A stretch of DNA of 20,374 nucleotides from a virus. The stretch spans positions 1 to 20,374 of IMG/VR virus record IMGVR_UViG_3300032282_001374; one strand, written 5' to 3'. Under the pieces are notes generated by a model, which did no database searches, was not told where the DNA came from, and saw only the letters and a program-made list of their open reading frames with translations. The position numbers were made by a program, and so were the translations under genes. Position 1 is the stretch's first letter. Every line of letters starts with the position of its first letter. Positions 730 to 19,923 of this stretch are shown piece by piece.

Positions 730-1132
730 AGAAAAGCTAACACCACAAGATCTAGATGCTAGATTAAAGTTTATTCTAGGTATCACACTAGGAACAATCT
801 TGCTATGCACATCACTCGGCATTCTTTATGGCCTTTTGTTTGTAACACAGCCAATTGGAGCACAGTCAGAAAATGACAAGATGTTCTTCAATGTTCTAGG
901 CAGCATCGCTACTTTTATTACAGGAACACTCGCGGGCATTCTTATTGGTTCTTCTGGCGCTAAAGACGTTATGGCAGCCCAACTACAGAACAAAGAGATG
1001 GACGCTAAGAACACACAGGCTGATAAGAAGCTTGAAGCAGAGATTGATGCTACAGCAGCACGTTTGGCAGCAAAGCCAGATGGCGCAATGCCAGAAGCAC
1101 AGCCAGTGGATACAGATTGGGATAAAGACTAA
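722..1132 (+). CDS. 136-aa membrane protein with two helices and a charged tail, holin-like
   Basis: A short charged N-terminus precedes two strongly hydrophobic segments, about residues 16-41 and 57-77 (the latter Gly-rich, TGTLAGILIG). A long polar C-terminal part follows (residues 80-118, rich in Lys, Glu, Gln and Ala), likely helical or coiled coil, with an acidic end (DTDWDKD). The gene overlaps the lipoprotein gene by 8 nt and abuts the CHAP endolysin through a TAATG overlap at 1130-1134. Position immediately before an endolysin and two-helix topology are typical of class II-like holins, and the large soluble tail would be cytoplasmic. I cannot assign a named holin family. With two holin-like proteins here, one may be an antiholin or an unrelated membrane protein. 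Confidence 0.75.
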   Translation: MAKEKLTPQDLDARLKFILGITLGTILLCTSLGILYGLLFVTQPIGAQSENDKMFFNVLGSIATFITGTLAGILIGSSGAKDVMAAQLQNKEMDAKNTQADKKLEAEIDATAARLAAKPDGAMPEAQPVDTDWDKD

Positions 1133-1680
1133 TGGCGGATCAAGGAACAGCAGCTCGTTTTATTGAAGTTGCCACAGCAGAATTAGGGACTATCGAAGGT
1201 CCTAAGGACAATGAAACTAAGTACGGCGCCTACACCAAGTCTAACTTTCAACCATGGTGCGGATCTTTCGTAAACTGGTGTGCTAACGAAGCTGGAGTAA
1301 AGATTCCTAACACTGTCTACACTCCAGGTGGAGCACAGGCATTTAAGAAAGCTGGGTCATGGATTGATGGAGACATCGCAGATCCAGAACCAGGGGATGT
1401 CGTTTATTTTGATTTTCCATCAGATGGTGTAGATCGCATTAGTCACGTAGGCATTGTTGTTAAAGATAATGAAGATGGGACTGTTTGGTGCATTGAAGGA
1501 AACACTAGCCCAGATAAAAAGGGCTCACAACGCAATGGCGGTCAAGTATCTAAGAAGCTTCGTGCTTTCAAGAAGAACAAGGCCGGTGAAATGATTTCAA
1601 TCGTAGGCTTTGGTCGCCCAAAGTTTAAAGCCTCTGGATCAGCTCCAGCAGCAGCTAAGTGCCCAACTTGCGGTAAGTAA
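1132..1680 (+). CDS. CHAP-domain endolysin (peptidoglycan amidase/endopeptidase)
   Basis: The 182-residue protein is almost entirely a CHAP domain (cysteine, histidine-dependent amidohydrolase/peptidase), which cuts amide or peptide bonds in peptidoglycan. The catalytic Cys is C43 in PWCGSFVNWC, the His is H105 in ISHVGIVV, and the third polar residue is E122 or N124 in CIEGNTS. The spacing and the GDVVYFDF strand before the His are typical of the fold. No signal peptide is present, so release through a holin pore is expected. There is no separate cell-wall-binding domain, but the protein ends in an Ala-rich linker and a CPTCGK tail containing a CxxC pair. The TAATG start overlap at 1130-1134 implies translational coupling to the holin-like gene. 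Known CHAP enzymes are amidases or endopeptidases, and the sequence alone does not decide which. Confidence 0.9.
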   Translation: MADQGTAARFIEVATAELGTIEGPKDNETKYGAYTKSNFQPWCGSFVNWCANEAGVKIPNTVYTPGGAQAFKKAGSWIDGDIADPEPGDVVYFDFPSDGVDRISHVGIVVKDNEDGTVWCIEGNTSPDKKGSQRNGGQVSKKLRAFKKNKAGEMISIVGFGRPKFKASGSAPAAAKCPTCGK

Positions 1681-1811: not shown

Positions 1812-2339
1812 TTAGAGTTGATTTTTAGGGAACTTTTGTAAAAAGTCCTCGTATCGTTCTCCGTTACTCTGTCCTGGGTATACCTTCCAAGAAGACCAGT
1901 CCCTACCACCATCGGTCATGTGATAAGCAATCTGTGCGTTCTTAACTGGATCAAACAGGTCCGCATTACTTTGTAGGCTGAATTTCTCCCGCCTATCGGC
2001 CCCTAGGCTACCAAGCATGTTTATCTGGAAAATTCCATAGGAATTGTCTCCAGTGCTTGTATCTCCGTTGTGGGCTGTAGGTCGACCGTTAGATTCCTTC
2101 TTGGCAACCGCCCAGGCAATCCTGAGGGCTTGTCCTTTGAACCCTACCTGGCTGAGTAGGTCTTTAAGGTTTTGGTCTGAGAGCTCGGTGGCTCCCCTAT
2201 ATAGGTCTAAGCCAGTTTTTACTGGCGTAGCCACAGTTACAGTAGATCCATCTGATTCAGCTGCTATAGCTGGAGGGATCCACGGAAGTGCGGCACATAG
2301 TACGAGTATTCCAATTTTCTGTTTAGCATTACCTTGCAC
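1812..2339 (-). CDS. Secreted lysozyme-like/lytic transglycosylase-type muralytic enzyme
   Basis: This is the only minus-strand gene seen. It encodes 175 residues. An N-terminal signal peptide (basic KQK, hydrophobic core about 9-24, AIAA cleavage region near residue 27) indicates Sec export. After a linker (28-55) comes a lysozyme-like goose/SLT fold. The likely catalytic Glu is E82 in AVAKKESNGRP, followed by the family's SYGIFQIN motif (residues 100-107), a helix with NAQIAYHM, and the DWSSWKVY end. Such domains cleave the glycan backbone, complementing the CHAP enzyme. The start is GTG at 2337-2339, preceded on the minus strand by GGAG about 6 nt upstream. It is transcribed toward the lysis operon and ends at the shared terminator, so it is an independent unit. 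Whether it is a hydrolase or a transglycosylase cannot be told. A virion-associated or moron role is possible. Confidence 0.85.
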   Translation of the reverse strand: MQGNAKQKIGILVLCAALPWIPPAIAAESDGSTVTVATPVKTGLDLYRGATELSDQNLKDLLSQVGFKGQALRIAWAVAKKESNGRPTAHNGDTSTGDNSYGIFQINMLGSLGADRREKFSLQSNADLFDPVKNAQIAYHMTDGGRDWSSWKVYPGQSNGERYEDFLQKFPKNQL

Positions 2340-9313: not shown

Positions 9314-10390
9314 ATGGCATCAGCCGTAACTGGTACCGGCAATTTAGCCGCTGCCCCAACAGCGTATTCTGGCGCTAACAGCCAGCTTACACAAGCAATT
9401 CAGACCATCTGGTCAAAGGAAATCCTTTTCCAGTCAATGCCTATTCTACGCTTCGAACAGTTCGCTGTTAAGAAGACAGAACTAGGAGTTGCACCAGGTC
9501 TTCAGATCAACTTTATGCGTTACAACAACCTCGGCTTTGCCGGTACGCTTGTTGAAGGCGTTCGTATGGAAACTAAGGCACTAACAGCTCAGCAATTCTC
9601 AATTACAGTTGCTGAACACGGTTATGCAATTGCTGTTTCTGAACTCCTACTCAACGCATCATTCGATGACGTAATGGCTTCAGCCTCACGTCTACTTGGC
9701 CGTAATATGGCCCTATACCTAGATGGCCAGGCTCGTGACACACTCATGGCCGCATCTTCAGTTATCTACGGCTATGACCGCTCAGGTCTTTCAGCTGCAA
9801 ATGACTGGTACGGAACAGGTACCGCTGGTACAAACCGTGCATCTCTAACTGGCGCATTTGACCTCACCACAGGTGTTGTCAAGGACGCAGTAGAGACACT
9901 TGCAACAAAGAACATCCCTCGCCTAGGTGAGACATATGTTGCATTCATTCACCCACACCAGAGCCGTAAGCTTCGTGACAACCCAGAGTTTATCGAAGTA
10001 ACAAAGTACGCAGCTCCAGGTAACTTCATGCTTGGTGAAATTGGTCGTCTATACGACACAGTATTTATCGAGACCACACAGATCCAGAAGGTAACAAACG
10101 GTGCAGGTTCAGGATACTCTGCAGACACCGCAGTTGCTGCTGGCAGCATTGCTTACCCAACTGGCGGAGGTTACACAACCCCAGTAACAAAGACCGGTAA
10201 CGGTAACAAGGATCGCTACACAGCTATCTTTATTGGTGACAATGCATTCGGTCACGCAATCTCTCTACCAGTTGAGCTCCGCGATGGCGGTATCCTTGAC
10301 TTCGGTCGTGAGCATGCGCTTGCTTGGTACGCAATCTACGGCCTAGGTCTAATCACAGATCAGTCTGTAGTTCTAGCAGAAACCAACTAA
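9314..10390 (+). CDS. Major capsid protein, N4-gp56 family
   Basis: The 358-aa coat protein forms the icosahedral head, with an HK97-like fold expected. The N-terminus is short and Ala/Gly-rich, with no cleavable delta domain visible. Family-like features are QTIWSKEILFQSMPILRFEQFA (about 30-51), the helix DVMASASRLLGRNMALYLDGQARD (119-142), and FIHPHQSRKLRDNPEF (211-226). Next comes GEIGRLYDTVFIETT (241-255), then IFIGDNAFGHAISLP (305-319) and the end LAWYAIYGLGLITDQS. A Gly/Thr-rich loop at about 260-300 is probably surface exposed. Strong ribosome site, AT-rich leader and codon choice suggest very high expression. Confidence 0.93.
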   Translation: MASAVTGTGNLAAAPTAYSGANSQLTQAIQTIWSKEILFQSMPILRFEQFAVKKTELGVAPGLQINFMRYNNLGFAGTLVEGVRMETKALTAQQFSITVAEHGYAIAVSELLLNASFDDVMASASRLLGRNMALYLDGQARDTLMAASSVIYGYDRSGLSAANDWYGTGTAGTNRASLTGAFDLTTGVVKDAVETLATKNIPRLGETYVAFIHPHQSRKLRDNPEFIEVTKYAAPGNFMLGEIGRLYDTVFIETTQIQKVTNGAGSGYSADTAVAAGSIAYPTGGGYTTPVTKTGNGNKDRYTAIFIGDNAFGHAISLPVELRDGGILDFGREHALAWYAIYGLGLITDQSVVLAETN

Positions 10391-10943: not shown

Positions 10944-13612
<2,669 letters not shown>

Positions 13613-13945
13613 ATGGCAGCTATTGAACGCCTAGGCGTAACCAAGTTAACTAGCGACGTAGCTTACGGTGCTAGTGGAACTACAGTATTTACAGCAAATG
13701 ATAAATACCTAATTTCAGTAATTGCAGCAAACACTGTCTCTACTGATGGGCGCATATTTGTATACGTTGTGCCTTCAGGAGCTTCAGTAGCCGATTACGG
13801 AGTAATTGCGTACGCACTACCCGTATCCGGATATAACTCATATGAAACTTTTAGATTTGGTGTTAATAACACCGACGTAGTAAAAGTTGCCGGCTCTGCT
13901 GGTTTAGCTTTTTACGTTCAAGGTATAGACCAAGTAACGGTTTAA
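13613..13945 (+). CDS. 110-aa beta-rich hypothetical virion protein
   Basis: ATG 13613 directly follows the collagen stop (TAA then ATG, no gap), indicating reinitiation. The protein has no signal or membrane segment. It is predicted to be almost all beta strand (TTVFTANDKYLISVIAAN, RIFVYVVPSG, YETFRFGVNNTDVVKV, GLAFYVQGIDQVTV). The fold type resembles small fibre-tip or decoration domains. I do not recognise a family. Coupling to the collagen-like gene suggests it caps or accompanies that fibre. Confidence 0.75.
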   Translation: MAAIERLGVTKLTSDVAYGASGTTVFTANDKYLISVIAANTVSTDGRIFVYVVPSGASVADYGVIAYALPVSGYNSYETFRFGVNNTDVVKVAGSAGLAFYVQGIDQVTV

Positions 13946-13954
13946 GGAGACTAA

Positions 13955-14275
13955 GTGCCAGGCTTTGCAAATCCCACGGATCTAGTATCAGCAACGGTAA
14001 TAGGTTACGACTCAAGAGATACTCTCCCCCTAGCTAGCGCTATTGGGGGGTACCCAACCCTTGAAGAAATTGGCGATAAAACCTTCTACGGATGGAAATT
14101 AGACCCGTCTACAGGCCGCCTTACTGTCACTAAGATCGACTCAGACGATAACTCAGTAGTTGACCTACCAAAAGAGAACATTTTAAGAGATAATGACTAC
14201 AAAGTATGGGTCTGGACCACAAGCTTAATCAAGCTAAGTTGGAACGCTGACCATCTAAATATGGAGGTAAATTAA
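13955..14275 (+). CDS. 106-aa hypothetical protein in the fibre operon
   Basis: It starts at GTG 13955 with AAGGAGA (13944-13950) just upstream, and ends one base into the next gene (TAATG). The product is mixed alpha/beta with GGYPTLEEIGDKTFYGWKLD, a strand pair around GRLTVTKIDSDDNSVVDLP, and an aromatic C-terminal strand region (KVWVWTTSLIKLSWNADHL). No family is recognised. Lying between two fibre genes with tight coupling on the 3' side, it may be a fibre subunit or assembly factor. Confidence 0.7.
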   Translation: MPGFANPTDLVSATVIGYDSRDTLPLASAIGGYPTLEEIGDKTFYGWKLDPSTGRLTVTKIDSDDNSVVDLPKENILRDNDYKVWVWTTSLIKLSWNADHLNMEVN

Positions 14276-17049
14276 TGGCACAGATTATTGACCTAGGCAA
14301 ACTTCGGTTTGTTTTTAAGGGAACCTACTCTGGCTCAACAACCTACGAGCTAAACGATGTAGTTCGTTACGGTGGTAACCTCTATGTTTACAAGTACACA
14401 CTAGAGACAAGCGCAAACCTCCCAACCAACGCTACTTATTGGGACTTGATGATGGAAGGCATCTCTTTTAAAGGTACTTACAATAACTCCACTGCTTATA
14501 AAATTGGCGACCTTGTAACTGAAGGCGGTAAGGGCTTTATCTGTATCTTAGATTCAACAGGAAACCGCCCACCTAATGGAACCTATTGGACAACTATTGT
14601 AGACGGCCTTCAATACGAAGGCGAATACTCAGGTTCTACAACTTATCAAGTAAACGACGTAGTTAGCTACGGTGGTTCTGCATACATTAATATTCTTCGA
14701 TCAACTGGAAACGCCCCAACAGATACCACTTACTGGAATCTATTTGTTAACGGTGCTTACCCAGATCAAAGTAGTAAAGCAACATTTATTTTAACAACAA
14801 ACGGCACTGCCGTTGCTTGGACAGACACGCCAACTTTAACCACTCTTGCAACTCGTGCAGATATCACTGTTGGTGGCGACGTAATAGCTCAAGGAAGCGT
14901 TGAAGTAAGCGGCCGTGCGGTATCTATTACTAACAAGGTAATTTCTTCTAACACAGCAACCGTGACTACTTCTGCAAAACATTATTTTGACGTTGGTGAC
15001 ACTGTTACTGTAGCTGGCGTAGGCGCTGGTTGGAACGGTACTAACATTCTTACTGGCGTAACTGATACTACATTTAGTTTCTTTACCTCAGCTGCAAACT
15101 CAGCATCTGCTGCTGTATCACCAGCTGGAACTGGAACAGTAGTAGGACACATTGTTGACGGAGGAAATCTTTCAGTAGCGGGTTCAACCACGCTTACAGG
15201 ACTGCTAAACGCTAATGGCGGAATCGCTGTCAACACAAACAAATTCACAGTAGACGCTACTACTGGAGATACTGTAGTAGATGGCGACTTCCATGTAGAG
15301 GGAACTCCTTACTTTGGAGCAAATGCTGTAACAGTTGCAGAGACTAATGGCGCTAACGTAAAATCAACCTCATTTAAGGCCCGTACCTCTAACGTAGCCA
15401 CGATTACTACCGCGGCAGTTCACAACTTCTACCCATTTCAAAAGGTTATTGTTGCAATTGGCGATGCCACATTTGACGGCGAAGTAGAAATTATTGCTAC
15501 CCCTACAACCACTACCTTTACCTATGCTAACGTTGGTACAAACTTAGCTTCAACAGCAGCCTCTGGCTCTGGAAAGCAAGTAAGCGCCGTAACTGGATTT
15601 ACTAACCTAATTGCATTTGCTGAGATTGACGCAGCAGATGACTACGCTCAGTTCTCAATCCAAAATACAGCCGCTGGCGTTAACTCTTCCTCAGACTTCC
15701 AAGCATATGCAAACAATGGAACAGATTTTTCTGGTTACATTGATATGGGTATCACATCGTCTGTCTTTAATGACCCAGAGTTTACAATCACTGGTCCTAA
15801 CGATGGTTACATATTTATGACTGCTCCTGTAGGAACTACAGGTAACGGTAACCTTGTTCTTGCAACAGGTGGCTACGGAGCTCAAAATAAAATTATCTTT
15901 GCCGCTGGTGGCCTTGATTCTAACTCTTCACAAATGGTTATTACTCCCAATGCAAACGTAAAAATTAACATCGCTACCCCATCTACATCTGCAACAACTG
16001 GAGCATTCCAGGTAGTTGGTGGCGTGGGTATCTCTGGTGACATGAACATTGCGGGTAACGTTAACATTGTTGGTACTATCTCGTTCGGTGGTTCTGGAAC
16101 AACGGTTACAACTAACAACCTATCTGTTGGTGAGCCAATGATCTTCTCTGGTGCTGGTAACCAAGCAGATATTATTGACGAAGGTATGATCTTTGAATAC
16201 GCCAAGACCGTATCTGCAATTACTAACACAGTAACTAACAAGGCCCTTACATCTAACGTAGCAACACTTACTACCGGAACTGCACACACCTACCGTGCCG
16301 GTGACGTAGTAGTTGTTTCAAGCGTGGATGCAACCTTTAACGGTACTTACTCAATCATTGCGGTTCCTACATCAACAACCTTTACTTACGCTAAGACAGC
16401 CTCTAACGTAACTTCTGCTGCGGTATCTCCAGTAGGCGGAACTTCCGTAGCGGCTCGTCGTGAGTTTGCAGGTATAGTTCGTGACGCAGTCGATGCTGGC
16501 GGAAATGGAATCTTTAAAGTATTTACTGGCGCAACAACTAAGCCATCTACATCAGTTAACTTCTCAGAATCTGGCCTTACCTACGGAAACGTACAGGTTA
16601 ACAACTCAATCGTTGGTGGAACCCTTGCAGTAACTGGTAACTCAACCTTTACAGGTGATGTAACTATTGCTGGTAACCTCAAGGTTCAAGAAATGTCCGA
16701 AGATGTTATCGACGTAGCGCTTTCTTCTAACGTTGCTGCACTTGACTACTCAACAGGTAATATCTTCTGGATTACCTCAACACCTTCTGCTGCTATGACT
16801 TGGAGCATTACAAACGCACCAACAGTTAACGGTCGTACATTTACAATCACTGGTTTTGTAACTCAAGGTGCTACTGGATACATCCCATCAACTCTAAACG
16901 TTAACGGCTCTGCTGCTACAATTAAGTGGTTTGGTGGAACATCTCCTACACCAACATCATCTTCAGGCAAGATTGATATCTTTAACTTCACCCTCATCTA
17001 TCGTGGATCTGCTTGGACAGCTCTAGGTAACGCATCAGTTAACTTCTAA
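14275..17049 (+). CDS. Modular tail fibre/host-recognition protein
   Basis: The 924-aa protein is visibly modular. Residues 12-160 hold three tandem carbohydrate-binding-like repeats of about 50 residues (FKGTYSGSTTYELNDVVRYG at 14, FKGTYNN at 65, YEGEYSG at 114), each with Y-x-x-x-D-x-V, an aromatic strand and P-x4-YW. Three copies of a second module (about 221-290, 368-436, 656-725) share SN(T/V)AT(V/I/L)TT, then a GD-x-V-x-V type strand and TTF(T/S). A central domain (about 445-565) with DYAQFSIQNTAAGVNSSSDF and GYIDMGITSS matches a type known from cyanophage fibres. The C-terminal 120 residues (SEDVIDVALSSNVAALDYST, then IKWFGGTSPTPTSSSGKIDI) form a beta tip. The TAATG start couples it to the upstream gene. 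Binding to surface glycans is inferred. Confidence 0.87.
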   Translation: MAQIIDLGKLRFVFKGTYSGSTTYELNDVVRYGGNLYVYKYTLETSANLPTNATYWDLMMEGISFKGTYNNSTAYKIGDLVTEGGKGFICILDSTGNRPPNGTYWTTIVDGLQYEGEYSGSTTYQVNDVVSYGGSAYINILRSTGNAPTDTTYWNLFVNGAYPDQSSKATFILTTNGTAVAWTDTPTLTTLATRADITVGGDVIAQGSVEVSGRAVSITNKVISSNTATVTTSAKHYFDVGDTVTVAGVGAGWNGTNILTGVTDTTFSFFTSAANSASAAVSPAGTGTVVGHIVDGGNLSVAGSTTLTGLLNANGGIAVNTNKFTVDATTGDTVVDGDFHVEGTPYFGANAVTVAETNGANVKSTSFKARTSNVATITTAAVHNFYPFQKVIVAIGDATFDGEVEIIATPTTTTFTYANVGTNLASTAASGSGKQVSAVTGFTNLIAFAEIDAADDYAQFSIQNTAAGVNSSSDFQAYANNGTDFSGYIDMGITSSVFNDPEFTITGPNDGYIFMTAPVGTTGNGNLVLATGGYGAQNKIIFAAGGLDSNSSQMVITPNANVKINIATPSTSATTGAFQVVGGVGISGDMNIAGNVNIVGTISFGGSGTTVTTNNLSVGEPMIFSGAGNQADIIDEGMIFEYAKTVSAITNTVTNKALTSNVATLTTGTAHTYRAGDVVVVSSVDATFNGTYSIIAVPTSTTFTYAKTASNVTSAAVSPVGGTSVAARREFAGIVRDAVDAGGNGIFKVFTGATTKPSTSVNFSESGLTYGNVQVNNSIVGGTLAVTGNSTFTGDVTIAGNLKVQEMSEDVIDVALSSNVAALDYSTGNIFWITSTPSAAMTWSITNAPTVNGRTFTITGFVTQGATGYIPSTLNVNGSAATIKWFGGTSPTPTSSSGKIDIFNFTLIYRGSAWTALGNASVNF

Positions 17050-17059
17050 GGAGCACTAA

Positions 17060-18079
17060 ATGCCTTTGTTTAGCAGCCAGCGCTCCGTTAACGGGGTGTT
17101 TAGCGCCCGTAAGAAGTCGGGCGGTGTTTTGCCCTACTTGACTCGTCAAGTTATTACAACGGGATTTGTTGCTGGAGGGTACAAAGACTCGGTGGCTTGG
17201 CAGAATGTCAACTCTTTTGACTTTGCATCAGAGACCACGACTGGTCGTGGAAACATTCTTACACACTCTGGTGGGTACATTACCGGTGCTATGAACCGTA
17301 CCTATAGCTACACAATTGGATCTTCTGGTACAGGCTCTTCTGGCATGGCTGCATCTGGTGGCGTAAATAAATGGAACCATAAAACTTACGCGATGGTAAC
17401 TACGCAAACCGCACCAGCTACTATGAACGATCCTGAGGCGGCTGTTCAATATGACCTATTAGGTACTGGCACCTTTGCTTGGGTTCAAACTAACACTGCA
17501 AATATGAATAAACTTGATATGACTACCGATACTTGGACTACATCTATCGGCACAGGCTTATCAACAAGTACATCTGGAGTTTCCTCTTATTGGAACGAAA
17601 CAGACGCTCTTTTTTGGGCAGATAGTACAACTTCCGCTGCTGCGGATGGTCAACGTAAATTTAACTTCGCAACCGTAACTGAATCAAACCCCGGAATCTC
17701 TCTAAGTACTTTCGGTAACCAAAAAGGTGTGCCTGGAAAAACTGGCTATGGTTGGGCTGGTAACGAAGGGTCTTACAGCGGTGGAAACAACATGCGTAGA
17801 TATAATTACACAACTAACTCCACATCCGTGCAGGGAGCAAAACCTGTAGCGGATTCTGGAGAAGAGAATTACTTTACTGGTCAAGCTATTGGCGTTACAT
17901 TGGGTTCATACACTGGTGCGGGACAAGTTCTCAATTCAGGAAAATATACCTACGCGACTGAATCTGGAACGCTTCTACCTTCAGGACAGTGGTACCGAGG
18001 AACACAGTCTGGAACTGGATCATCAGCCGGATCAGCTATCGCAGGGGCATCATCTGGTGCAGGAACTTGGAGTGACTAA
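17060..18079 (+). CDS. Propeller-like receptor-binding paralogue 1
   Basis: The 339-aa protein is preceded by AAGGAG (17049-17054). Residues 1-50 (MPLFSSQRSVNGVFSARKKS, then LTRQVITTG) are nearly the same as in the next gene and probably dock it to the virion. The rest divides into about six units of 40-50 residues, with a Gly/Ser/Thr-rich part ending in an aromatic strand and a (K/R)-F/Y-N-F/Y-x-T strand (KLDMTTDTW, KFNFATVTES, RYNYTTNST, KYTYATESG). This is a kelch-like beta-propeller pattern. The last 20 residues (GTQSGTGSSAGSAIAGASSG) are low-complexity and shared with the paralogue. No catalytic motif is visible. Placement after the large fibre suggests a receptor-binding or distal fibre subunit. 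Confidence 0.75.
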   Translation: MPLFSSQRSVNGVFSARKKSGGVLPYLTRQVITTGFVAGGYKDSVAWQNVNSFDFASETTTGRGNILTHSGGYITGAMNRTYSYTIGSSGTGSSGMAASGGVNKWNHKTYAMVTTQTAPATMNDPEAAVQYDLLGTGTFAWVQTNTANMNKLDMTTDTWTTSIGTGLSTSTSGVSSYWNETDALFWADSTTSAAADGQRKFNFATVTESNPGISLSTFGNQKGVPGKTGYGWAGNEGSYSGGNNMRRYNYTTNSTSVQGAKPVADSGEENYFTGQAIGVTLGSYTGAGQVLNSGKYTYATESGTLLPSGQWYRGTQSGTGSSAGSAIAGASSGAGTWSD

Positions 18080-19107
18080 TGCCTCTATTTAGCAGCCAAC
18101 GCTCAGTTAATGGTGTTTTTAGCGCACGTAAAAAGTCGAGTGGAGTAATCCCCTTTCTTACACGTCAAGTTATTACTACTGGCTACGTAGCAGCGGGCTA
18201 TAAAGACGGTGTTGCATGGCGTAACGTAAACGTGTTATCCCATACTACAGATACTTGTACAAACCTCGGTGATCTTCTTCAAGAAGCGGCTAACTACACA
18301 AAGGGCGCACAGACTAAAAATACCGCATACGTGTTTGCTACAAACGGCACTGGAACCCAAGGTGTTGGTGCGTTTACCTCTACTTCTTGCTTTAACATGC
18401 GTAACAACACTACAATGACTAAGAACAACAGCATGAACTCAGGCACAGCTATTGCTGATGGTGCAACTATTCAATCTACTGGACCAACGGGTGAGTACCT
18501 CTTTGCATACCATAACGGTAACAACACTGGCACTTTTACTCAAAAATTTAATATGACTACAGAAGTTTATGTTGGAACTATTTCCTCATCTATGACCCAA
18601 GGAACTGCTGGAAGCCACTGGGGGGAAAACCATGGTTATTGGTGGACAGACGACGGAACTGGACGAAAACTAGTATGGGCTACAGAATCTGAAACTACTC
18701 CAGCAACTTCTCCGGGTAACCACGGCCAACAAAAAGGTTTATCCGCAAAAACTGGTTTTGGGTATGGCGGTAATGAGGGCAACTATGGTTCTGGCCGTTA
18801 TTTCCGTAAATGGAATTACACAACTGAGGTAACTGTGTCAACACCACAGAAGCCTGTATGGTGGGGCGGAGAAGAAAATTTCAATACAGGTCAAACTGCT
18901 GGGTATATGCTTGGCCACTATAACGATACTGCTGGCGGAAACGCTTCCGGTGGTGGTCAAACAAATGACTCAGGAAAGTTTACTTACGCAACAGATACGG
19001 GCGTTAGAGGCGCTTTTGACCCAACAGGAACACAATCTGGAACTGGATCTGCAGCTGGTTCCCCAATTGGAGGCCGCTCATCGGGAGTAGGCTTCTGGCG
19101 CGACTAA
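18079..19107 (+). CDS. Propeller-like receptor-binding paralogue 2
   Basis: The 342-aa protein starts in a TAATG overlap with paralogue 1. Of the first 51 residues, 44 match the paralogue. The middle (about 52-210) shares only the spacing and strand pattern (KFNMTTEVY, KLVWATESE). The C-terminal half is again recognisable: QQKGLSAKTGFGYGGNEGNY, then WNYTTEV, GGEENFNTGQT, SGKFTYATDTG and GTQSGTGSAAGSPIGG. Codons differ at many synonymous sites, so the duplication is not recent. The pattern of fixed ends and variable centre fits alternative or heteromeric host-recognition subunits. Six kelch-like units are my estimate. Confidence 0.75.
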   Translation: MPLFSSQRSVNGVFSARKKSSGVIPFLTRQVITTGYVAAGYKDGVAWRNVNVLSHTTDTCTNLGDLLQEAANYTKGAQTKNTAYVFATNGTGTQGVGAFTSTSCFNMRNNTTMTKNNSMNSGTAIADGATIQSTGPTGEYLFAYHNGNNTGTFTQKFNMTTEVYVGTISSSMTQGTAGSHWGENHGYWWTDDGTGRKLVWATESETTPATSPGNHGQQKGLSAKTGFGYGGNEGNYGSGRYFRKWNYTTEVTVSTPQKPVWWGGEENFNTGQTAGYMLGHYNDTAGGNASGGGQTNDSGKFTYATDTGVRGAFDPTGTQSGTGSAAGSPIGGRSSGVGFWRD

Positions 19108-19122
19108 TGATAGGATCACTAC

Positions 19123-19923
19123 ATGGAAAACAAAACAAGCTACGAAATGACCTCAGCAAAAGAGCGGTACGACCAACTTCTTAAAGAGATGTCCAGCACC
19201 ACGGACGGACTTGATGATCGCTCAAAGGAAATCTTAGATTTAGCCCTACACACCGATCACAACACCCCGTACTTTAAGATTAAGCACTTTGTTGGGGATG
19301 CTCAAATCACTCCGTACGCAAAGTACCGTCAATTCCTCCTTGAAATCCGTTCTCGTGAAGAAATCATTGAGAACCTTCTTATGAACATTGCTAAGCAAGA
19401 AGCTCAGATTGAAGTTACAAGAGAAGAGCTAGCCGAGGCTGAAACCCCGGCACGTGCAAAACTTAAAGAGTTTGATCTAGTAACAAACCGTAATGATTTG
19501 ATCAAGATCCACCGCAGACTGTCTTCAGCCTACGCTGAGCGTGAGAACTTCTTACGGGCTATGCGAGAGATGTACGATAGCGGTGAGGCCTTCCTTCCAG
19601 ACGGAACTGACCTTAAAGACGTTATGAATAACCCAGAGTTGACTGAAGCACACGAGCGTGACCTATGGCGCAACCGTCTAGGAAAGCAAGCTGCTTTAGA
19701 TATTCTTACCACTGGAAAAATTGGTACGGGCAACATGGACGCTATCACAATGATGGGTGAAGATGATGCTGTATACGCTTTAAACGTAGCTATGGATTGG
19801 TCTTTGCGAGTTAATACCGCACTAGAGACTCTTCAAGCCAACGCAGTTAAAGAGCTAAGTGATGGTAGGGATTTTGATTTGAAGTTAAACAGCCCCGCCG
19901 TAACACCAAAAGAACTACAGTAA
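19123..19923 (+). CDS. 266-aa helical hypothetical protein downstream of fibres
   Basis: The ATAGGAT ribosome site is 9 nt before ATG 19123. The product is soluble and mostly helical. A conserved-looking block, TPYFKIKHFVGDAQITPYAKYRQFLLEIRS, spans about residues 48-77 (in two strands and a helix). It is followed by a coiled coil (78-115, EEIIENLLMNIAKQEAQIEV), a second helix-rich part (116-180) and an acidic end. No enzyme motif is seen. I recognise the block as a recurrent phage hypothetical but cannot name a function. Position after fibre genes suits a fibre assembly chaperone or a structural adaptor. It overlaps the next gene by one base (TAATG). Confidence 0.75.
   Translation: MENKTSYEMTSAKERYDQLLKEMSSTTDGLDDRSKEILDLALHTDHNTPYFKIKHFVGDAQITPYAKYRQFLLEIRSREEIIENLLMNIAKQEAQIEVTREELAEAETPARAKLKEFDLVTNRNDLIKIHRRLSSAYAERENFLRAMREMYDSGEAFLPDGTDLKDVMNNPELTEAHERDLWRNRLGKQAALDILTTGKIGTGNMDAITMMGEDDAVYALNVAMDWSLRVNTALETLQANAVKELSDGRDFDLKLNSPAVTPKELQ

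What the first reader, a model, noticed from the sequence alone, without database searches (positions are those of the whole stretch)
17060..19107. Tandem propeller paralogues with conserved ends and divergent centre
Two neighbouring genes share 44 of the first 51 residues and most of the last third, while the middle has diverged strongly. Synonymous differences show age. This is what would be expected of paired receptor-binding subunits diversifying under host pressure, or of a recombination system swapping centres between fixed flanks.
Basis: partly seen in the sequence, partly recalled or inferred. Interest (0 to 1): 0.65.

Follow-up and report, generated by a model that had tools for sequence, protein, structure and literature searches.

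The report
Swappable propeller heads on phage fibre
Two neighbouring genes of an uncultured, apparently actinobacterial phage each encode a six-bladed propeller on a short near-identical leader; they probably form the tip of the tail fibre, and related phages exchange the propeller parts while keeping the leader and the neighbouring genes, a recognisable new case of how phages change what they stick to.

Summary
A (17060-18079) and B (18079-19107) share 44 of the first 51 residues, 26% of the centre and 52% of the last third. AlphaFold (pLDDT 89) with Foldseek gives a six-bladed kelch-type propeller after a disordered ~20-residue N-terminus. The family (PHROG_1417, unknown function; cyanophage 'sericin-like' proteins) normally sits in 1-3 tandem copies between a long fibre gene and PHROG_1409. 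'Diversifying under host pressure' fails as stated: among orthologues the centre evolves like the C-terminus (dN/dS 0.04-0.16), and A and B bodies are old separate lineages. 'Swapping between fixed flanks' is supported: against its closest relative, DNA differs by 1-2% up to codon 26 of A, by about 19% from 17138 to 19074, and by 0-2% after that. An unrelated phage pair shows the same pattern in one copy. The anchor behaves as a socket: it is matched between the two copies within each genome, and related anchors carry unrelated glycine-rich heads in other phages. No retroelement, resolvase or inverted repeat was found, so ordinary homologous recombination is likeliest. Most likely these are fibre-tip adhesin heads. 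Receptor binding is inferred, not shown.

The parts
17060..17137 (+). A: N-terminal anchor (codons 1-26, MPLFSSQRSVNGVFSARKKSGGVLPY); belongs to the conserved left flank
   Evidence: 1 SNP in 78 nt against L010 while the body has 165 in 941; related anchor on glycine-rich slot proteins; the equivalent stretch is disordered in the model of B
17138..18079 (+). A: six-bladed kelch-type propeller body, first part of the exchanged tract
   Evidence: Family alignment and structure of the paralogue; dense SNPs from 17138
18079..18150 (+). B: N-terminal anchor (residues 1-24), near-identical in protein to that of A
   Evidence: 96% identical to A over residues 1-23; pLDDT about 46-52 over the first 20 residues
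18151..19074 (+). B: six-bladed kelch-type propeller body, second part of the exchanged tract
   Evidence: AlphaFold pLDDT 89, pTM 0.88; Foldseek to Keap1 and SAKe6 kelch propellers, E about 1e-10, TM up to 0.83
19075..19107 (+). B: conserved C-terminal end (about RSSGVGFWRD, stop), right edge of the exchanged tract
   Evidence: 0 SNPs in 19075-19122 against L010; maximum-likelihood breakpoint 19075
14275..17049 (+). Long tail fibre gene immediately upstream; left flank of the exchanged cassette
   Evidence: PHROG tail fibre hits; 1.8% SNPs to L010 over its last 400 nt
19123..19923 (+). PHROG_1409 protein (266 aa), always linked to the propeller genes; candidate fibre-tip assembly partner; right flank
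   Evidence: phrog_1409 E=1e-38; present in 106 of 106 propeller loci with at least 3.5 kb downstream, and in 1 of 53 loci without propellers; 1.6% SNPs to L010
19923..20374 (+). 150-aa gene of the same conserved module, cut at the window edge
   Evidence: Homologue in L010 and relatives between PHROG_1409 and a 555-aa PHROG_1458 gene
13613..14275 (+). Two small genes (110 and 106 aa) that travel with the fibre gene
   Evidence: Conserved order in fibre-bearing relatives

Best explanation
A and B are two tandem, long-diverged copies of a fibre-tip adhesin. Each has a flexible ~20-26 residue anchor peptide that docks to the tip of the fibre made by the upstream gene, or to a common tail site, and a six-bladed kelch-type propeller head that contacts the host surface. 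The head-encoding stretch is exchanged between phages by ordinary homologous recombination at the conserved anchor and C-terminal ends, while fibre, anchor and downstream partner stay put. Shown: propeller fold of B by confident prediction; disordered anchor; within-genome matching of anchors; related anchors on unrelated glycine-rich heads; exchange tracts with sharp edges in two unrelated phage pairs; purifying selection on both copies; linkage to PHROG_1409 without exception. Inferred: position at the fibre tip, receptor binding, what each copy binds, and a chaperone or docking role for PHROG_1409.
For: Fold: pLDDT 89 and pTM 0.88 for B; internal repeat of ~50 residues; top Foldseek hits are six-bladed kelch propellers, and the best viral hit is the cyanophage 'sericin 1-like' protein, TM 0.79. 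Position: directly after the fibre gene. In related phages the same slot holds glycine-rich proteins with Pfam Gly_rich_2 or ALK_LTK_GRD domains, the kind of domain that makes the receptor-binding tip of S16 gp38 and Pam3 gp24 (PMC12892980, PMC9608196). Anchor: a profile built only from propeller anchors ranks glycine-rich slot genes and look-alikes just below the propeller genes themselves among 667 ORF starts. Anchor residues 1-23 are 95-100% identical within a genome (W, L024, L026, L007) but, between these lineages, mostly 70-78% (87-91% for L024/L026) or about 43%, whereas bodies group copy 1 with copy 1 (100/100). The tree uniting both copies of the window group is rejected for the body (p-AU 0.0009), and the copy-1 clade is rejected for the anchor (p-AU 0.031). 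Exchange: window versus L010 has 1-2% SNPs in the flanks and 17.5-20% in the bodies (p=8e-29 left, 9e-46 right), breakpoints 17138 and 19075; A and B dS 0.89 and 0.95 against 0.07 in the next gene. L053/L054 copy 2: N-terminal 225 nt 1 SNP, body 65/885, downstream 15/1565, breakpoints just after the N-terminal region and ~10 residues before the end. Linkage: PHROG_1409 in 106/106 propeller loci and 1/53 others; the exception begins at a contig edge.
Against: No protein of this family has a demonstrated virion position or ligand in what I could read. Sharp exchange tracts were found in only two unrelated pairs. Other close pairs show no island (L008/L009), or elevated divergence across the whole fibre region. 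Genes upstream of 13.9 kb are as diverged between W and L010 as A and B are, so the conserved flanks may be the imported pieces and A/B the resident one; either way the boundaries lie at the same places. Anchor matching in the window lineage is saturated at synonymous sites, so it may reflect co-selection and not recent gene conversion; only L007 has a synonymous footprint (16% of shared codons differ in the anchor against about 50% elsewhere). The anchor tests rest on 69 nucleotides, and the homology of propeller and glycine-rich anchors rests on about 9 residues. Only B was modelled.
Confidence: 0.72

Rival explanations
1. Old duplicated structural proteins under plain constraint: the ends are conserved because of folding and docking, the centre drifted, and nothing is exchanged between phages.
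For: A/B identity follows the family-wide conservation profile (Spearman 0.63 on smoothed columns); dN/dS is low throughout; several phage pairs show no island.
Against: Sharp, simultaneous jumps in synonymous and non-synonymous divergence at 17138 and 19075 (dS 0.9 inside, 0.07 in the next gene) cannot come from constraint, and the pattern repeats in L053/L054. Anchor and body trees conflict.
Confidence: 0.15
2. Positive selection by hosts diversifies the centre point by point.
For: The centre is the most divergent part between paralogues, with A/B dN/dS of about 0.4-0.7 where dS can still be measured.
Against: Between orthologues the centre is as constrained as the C-terminus, dN/dS 0.04-0.16. 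Excess divergence is equally present at synonymous sites.
Confidence: 0.06
3. A dedicated variation system (diversity-generating retroelement, invertase, or shuffling between A and B) swaps the centres.
For: Fixed ends with a divergent centre and tandem copies are what such systems produce.
Against: No reverse transcriptase or resolvase domain in the window or five relatives, no inverted repeats around the genes, and A and B bodies keep their own lineages across genomes. The contigs are partial, so a remote gene cannot be excluded.
Confidence: 0.05

Closest known systems
PHROG_1417 / cyanophage 'sericin 1 precursor-like' proteins (T4-GC 351, e.g. P-SSM4_032, Syn19_043)
   Same: Same domain by profile (E=2e-41 for B, 6e-19 for A) and by fold (TM 0.79); same downstream PHROG_1409 and PHROG_1458 relatives.
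   Different: The cyanophage form has a longer N-terminus (about 150 residues) and a single detected copy in P-SSM4; here the N-terminus is a short peptide shared by two copies, in a phage whose capsid is 73% identical to Streptomyces phages.
T2/S16-type gp38 and Pam3 gp24 fibre-tip adhesins
   Same: Gene directly after the fibre gene; head joined through an N-terminal attachment region that must match the fibre (PMC12892980: PP01 gp38 failed with T2 gp37 until its N-terminus was replaced); variable head; glycine-rich proteins occupy this same slot in relatives.
   Different: A and B are kelch propellers with no glycine-rich lattice; two heads per phage; the attachment is a ~25-residue peptide and not a ~110-residue domain.
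Phage propeller receptor-binding proteins (phi11 RBP five-bladed; PRD1 P2; phiKZ gp131)
   Same: Beta-propeller as probable host-contact domain (PMC4901313).
   Different: Six kelch-type blades, separate tip protein without stem or tower, tandem copies; no significant sequence match to solved structures.
Metaviromic islands in host-recognition modules
   Same: Near-identical flanks with a divergent host-recognition cassette (PMC3909814); a tail-fibre island is reported in Nanopelagicales phages (PMC10202952).
   Different: Here the island is resolved to the base and its edges coincide with the anchor and the C-terminal motif; read recruitment was not tested.

Membership tests
PHROG_1417 propeller family | Profile match over the conserved ~300-residue domain | tested here: met
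   E=1.8e-41 (B) and 6.1e-19 (A)
PHROG_1417 propeller family | Followed by PHROG_1409 | tested here: met
   (106/106 loci with enough downstream sequence)
PHROG_1417 propeller family | Presence in the virion | not testable with these tools
   Needs proteomics
Kelch-type beta-propeller (fold) | Six-bladed propeller fold | tested here: met
   pLDDT 89; Keap1 and SAKe6 E about 1e-10, TM up to 0.83; ~50-residue repeats; B only
Kelch-type beta-propeller (fold) | Pfam Kelch sequence motif | tested here: not met
   No Pfam match at E<=1 for A or B; so it folds like kelch propellers but is not filed as a Pfam Kelch member
gp38-type fibre-tip adhesin | Gene directly downstream of the distal fibre gene | tested here: met
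gp38-type fibre-tip adhesin | Glycine-rich (polyglycine II) head | tested here: not met
   A and B are propellers; glycine-rich heads occur in the same slot of other phages. Works like, not member of
gp38-type fibre-tip adhesin | N-terminal attachment region matched to the fibre | tested here: inconclusive
   Anchors matched within genomes and shared with other heads; attachment itself not shown
Diversity-generating retroelement target | Reverse transcriptase nearby | tested here: not met
   No RVT_1 in window or five relatives; contigs incomplete
Invertible fibre cassette | Inverted repeats and serine recombinase | tested here: not met
Metaviromic island | Identity drop between near-identical flanks | tested here: met
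   Window/L010, L053/L054
Metaviromic island | Under-recruitment of reads from the same habitat | not testable with these tools
   No read data

The most novel reading that the evidence does not exclude
A ~25-residue N-terminal peptide (MP[FLI][FILV][SA]S.R.. type) is a common socket in a large group of aquatic phages: it lets one fibre tip accept unrelated heads (kelch propellers, glycine-rich adhesins), and in the propeller phages two different heads are displayed at once, their anchors kept matched by concerted evolution, with PHROG_1409 as the dedicated loader of propeller heads.
Probability: 0.33. Interest if true: 0.68.

Novelty: new variant of a known kind. Interest (0 to 1): 0.52.

Why it matters
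It gives a fold, a position and a probable role to a phage family of unknown function (PHROG_1417; 476 stretches encoding relatives matched in viral contigs with one pattern pair) and names a linked partner (PHROG_1409). It makes a testable claim about modular host recognition in aquatic phages: a short anchor peptide is the interchange joint, so heads can be recognised and exchanged without touching the fibre. The same tip module occurs in phages with Streptomyces-phage-like capsids and in cyanomyoviruses, so it crosses host phyla.

Tried and rejected
First structure job with a 13-sequence alignment gave pLDDT 31; redone with 114 sequences. Scan of bacterial genomes found no relative. Search of solved structures by sequence gave one hit at E=0.69 to a designed kelch propeller, not significant. 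Pfam gave nothing for A or B. Megablast of the window against phage records gave no match. Diversity-generating retroelement and invertase hypotheses were tested and dropped. Gene conversion between the copies as a recent event in the window was rejected: synonymous sites in the anchor are saturated. A C-terminal mosaic in L024/L026 copy 2 (centre closer to L007/L028, C-terminus closer to the window's B) was seen but not tested formally. L081 against window and L010 gave no island at the B/PHROG_1409 border (the zero for the 555-aa gene against the window there is an artefact of the window's end). A photosystem gene search in eight relatives, to guess cyanobacterial hosts, was negative and uninformative. 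The words 'sericin' and PHROG_1417 gave no paper. First script attempts that failed.

Full report
What is there. The window is a 20.4-kb viral record. Its major capsid protein is 73% identical to Streptomyces phage LuckySocke and its relatives, so an actinobacterial host is likely; the terminase-portal-scaffold-capsid order matches. After a collagen-like gene, two small genes and a 924-aa tail fibre (PHROG tail fibre) come A and B, then a PHROG_1409 gene. A and B are intact, overlap by TAATG, and are 43% identical.

What the protein is. Pfam has no match. PHROG_1417, of unknown function, matches both, and phage-record hits are all cyanophages. A 114-member alignment gave a confident model of B (pLDDT 89, pTM 0.88) with residues 1-20 poorly ordered. 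The profile matches itself at shifts of about 50 and 100 residues. Foldseek finds six-bladed kelch propellers (Keap1, SAKe6; E about 1e-10) and the cyanophage S-RIM12 sericin-like protein. So 'propeller' is correct.

Tandem copies are the rule. Across the 148 loci fetched that hold the domain, the count per locus is 1 in 45, 2 in 79 and 3 in 24 (some contigs are fetched more than once and many are cut at an edge). The body tree puts copy 1 of the window group with copy 1 of L024/L026/L035, and copy 2 with copy 2, support 100/100; a tree uniting the two window copies is rejected, p-AU 0.0009. The duplication therefore predates these phages. Between orthologues dN/dS is 0.04-0.16 in the centre and similar in the C-terminal third. 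There is no sign that the centre is diversifying by point mutation.

The anchor is different. Residues 1-23 are 95-100% identical within a genome and less so between lineages, including indels shared by both L007 copies. In the anchor DNA tree the window group's copies join (93/97) and the copy-1 clade is rejected, p-AU 0.031. In L007 the anchor differs at 16% of synonymous-comparable codons against about 50% elsewhere, a footprint of relatively recent homogenisation; in the window it is saturated, so there the match is old or co-selected. In relatives whose fibre is about 43-58% identical, the gene in the same slot is a glycine-rich protein (Pfam Gly_rich_2 or ALK_LTK_GRD) that begins MPF[IV]SS.RG.FG. 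A score matrix made only from propeller anchors places these directly below the propeller genes among 667 ORF starts. Glycine-rich heads of this kind form the receptor-binding tip in S16 gp38 and Pam3 gp24 (PMC12892980, PMC9608196), and a gp38 with the wrong N-terminus does not work on another phage's fibre (PMC12892980). In one cyanophage-like branch a 631-aa copy carries a glycine-rich stretch in front of the propeller. These facts together argue for a fibre-tip slot with a fixed anchor and exchangeable heads. The position at the tip is inference.

Exchange between phages. Window versus L010: 7/400 SNPs at the end of the fibre, 1/78 in the A anchor, 165/941 in the A body, 18/78 in the B anchor, 184/918 in the B body, 0/48 at the end of B, 13/800 in the next gene; breakpoints 17138 and 19075, log-likelihood gain 143. 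dS is 0.89 and 0.95 in A and B against 0.07 in the next gene. A's anchor thus belongs to the left flank and B's last ~11 codons to the right flank; the exchanged unit here is A body plus B, with B's own anchor inside the tract. L053/L054, from another branch, shows the same in its second copy: breakpoints just after the N-terminal region and ~10 residues before the end. Genes upstream of 13.9 kb are also strongly diverged between window and L010, so which side moved is not known. Other close pairs show weak or no islands. No reverse transcriptase, resolvase or inverted repeat was found; homologous recombination at conserved ends is enough.

A linked partner. Every one of 106 propeller loci with at least 3.5 kb downstream carries a PHROG_1409 homologue. 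Of 53 loci without a propeller only L080 does, and that contig starts at the gene. The cyanophage P-SSM4 has the same set. By analogy with fibre chaperones encoded next to tips (Pam3 gp25, PMC9608196) it may be an assembly factor; this is a guess.

Verdict.

Noticed in passing
window 19123-19923 and about 106 related loci: PHROG_1409 (unknown function) co-occurs without exception with the propeller genes where enough downstream sequence is held; candidate dedicated chaperone or docking partner.
   Followed up: partly
L010 11216-12883: A 555-aa PHROG_1458 gene downstream in the same module carries a Methyltransf_24 domain at its C-terminus and is shared with cyanophages; function unknown.
   Followed up: partly
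window 9314-10390 versus 17060-19923: Capsid module like Streptomyces phages (73% identity) combined with a tail-tip module otherwise known from cyanomyoviruses: module sharing across phages of different host phyla.
   Followed up: partly
L024 5001-6020, L026 5001-6020: Copy 2 looks mosaic: centre closer to L007/L028 (63-67%), residues about 210-290 closer to the window's B (75-90%); possible recombination inside the propeller near residue 210.
   Followed up: partly
window 12017-13612: Collagen-like gene (Gly-X-Y triplets, mostly GPT/GAT) upstream of the fibre.
   Followed up: no
window 1132-1680 (+) and 1812-2339 (-): By eye, a CHAP-amidase-like gene and, on the opposite strand, a lysozyme/transglycosylase-like gene close together: possible lysis genes.
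   Followed up: no
L008 7041-8936, L043, L049 and relatives: 631-652 aa family members carry a glycine-rich stretch N-terminal to the propeller, followed by a second short-N-terminus copy.
   Followed up: partly
L102 7693-8553, L107 7669-8448: In some phages the slot after the fibre holds yet another head type (PHROG_25721 in L102, lectin-like by eye) with a different MPLLET.GSSS N-terminus.
   Followed up: no
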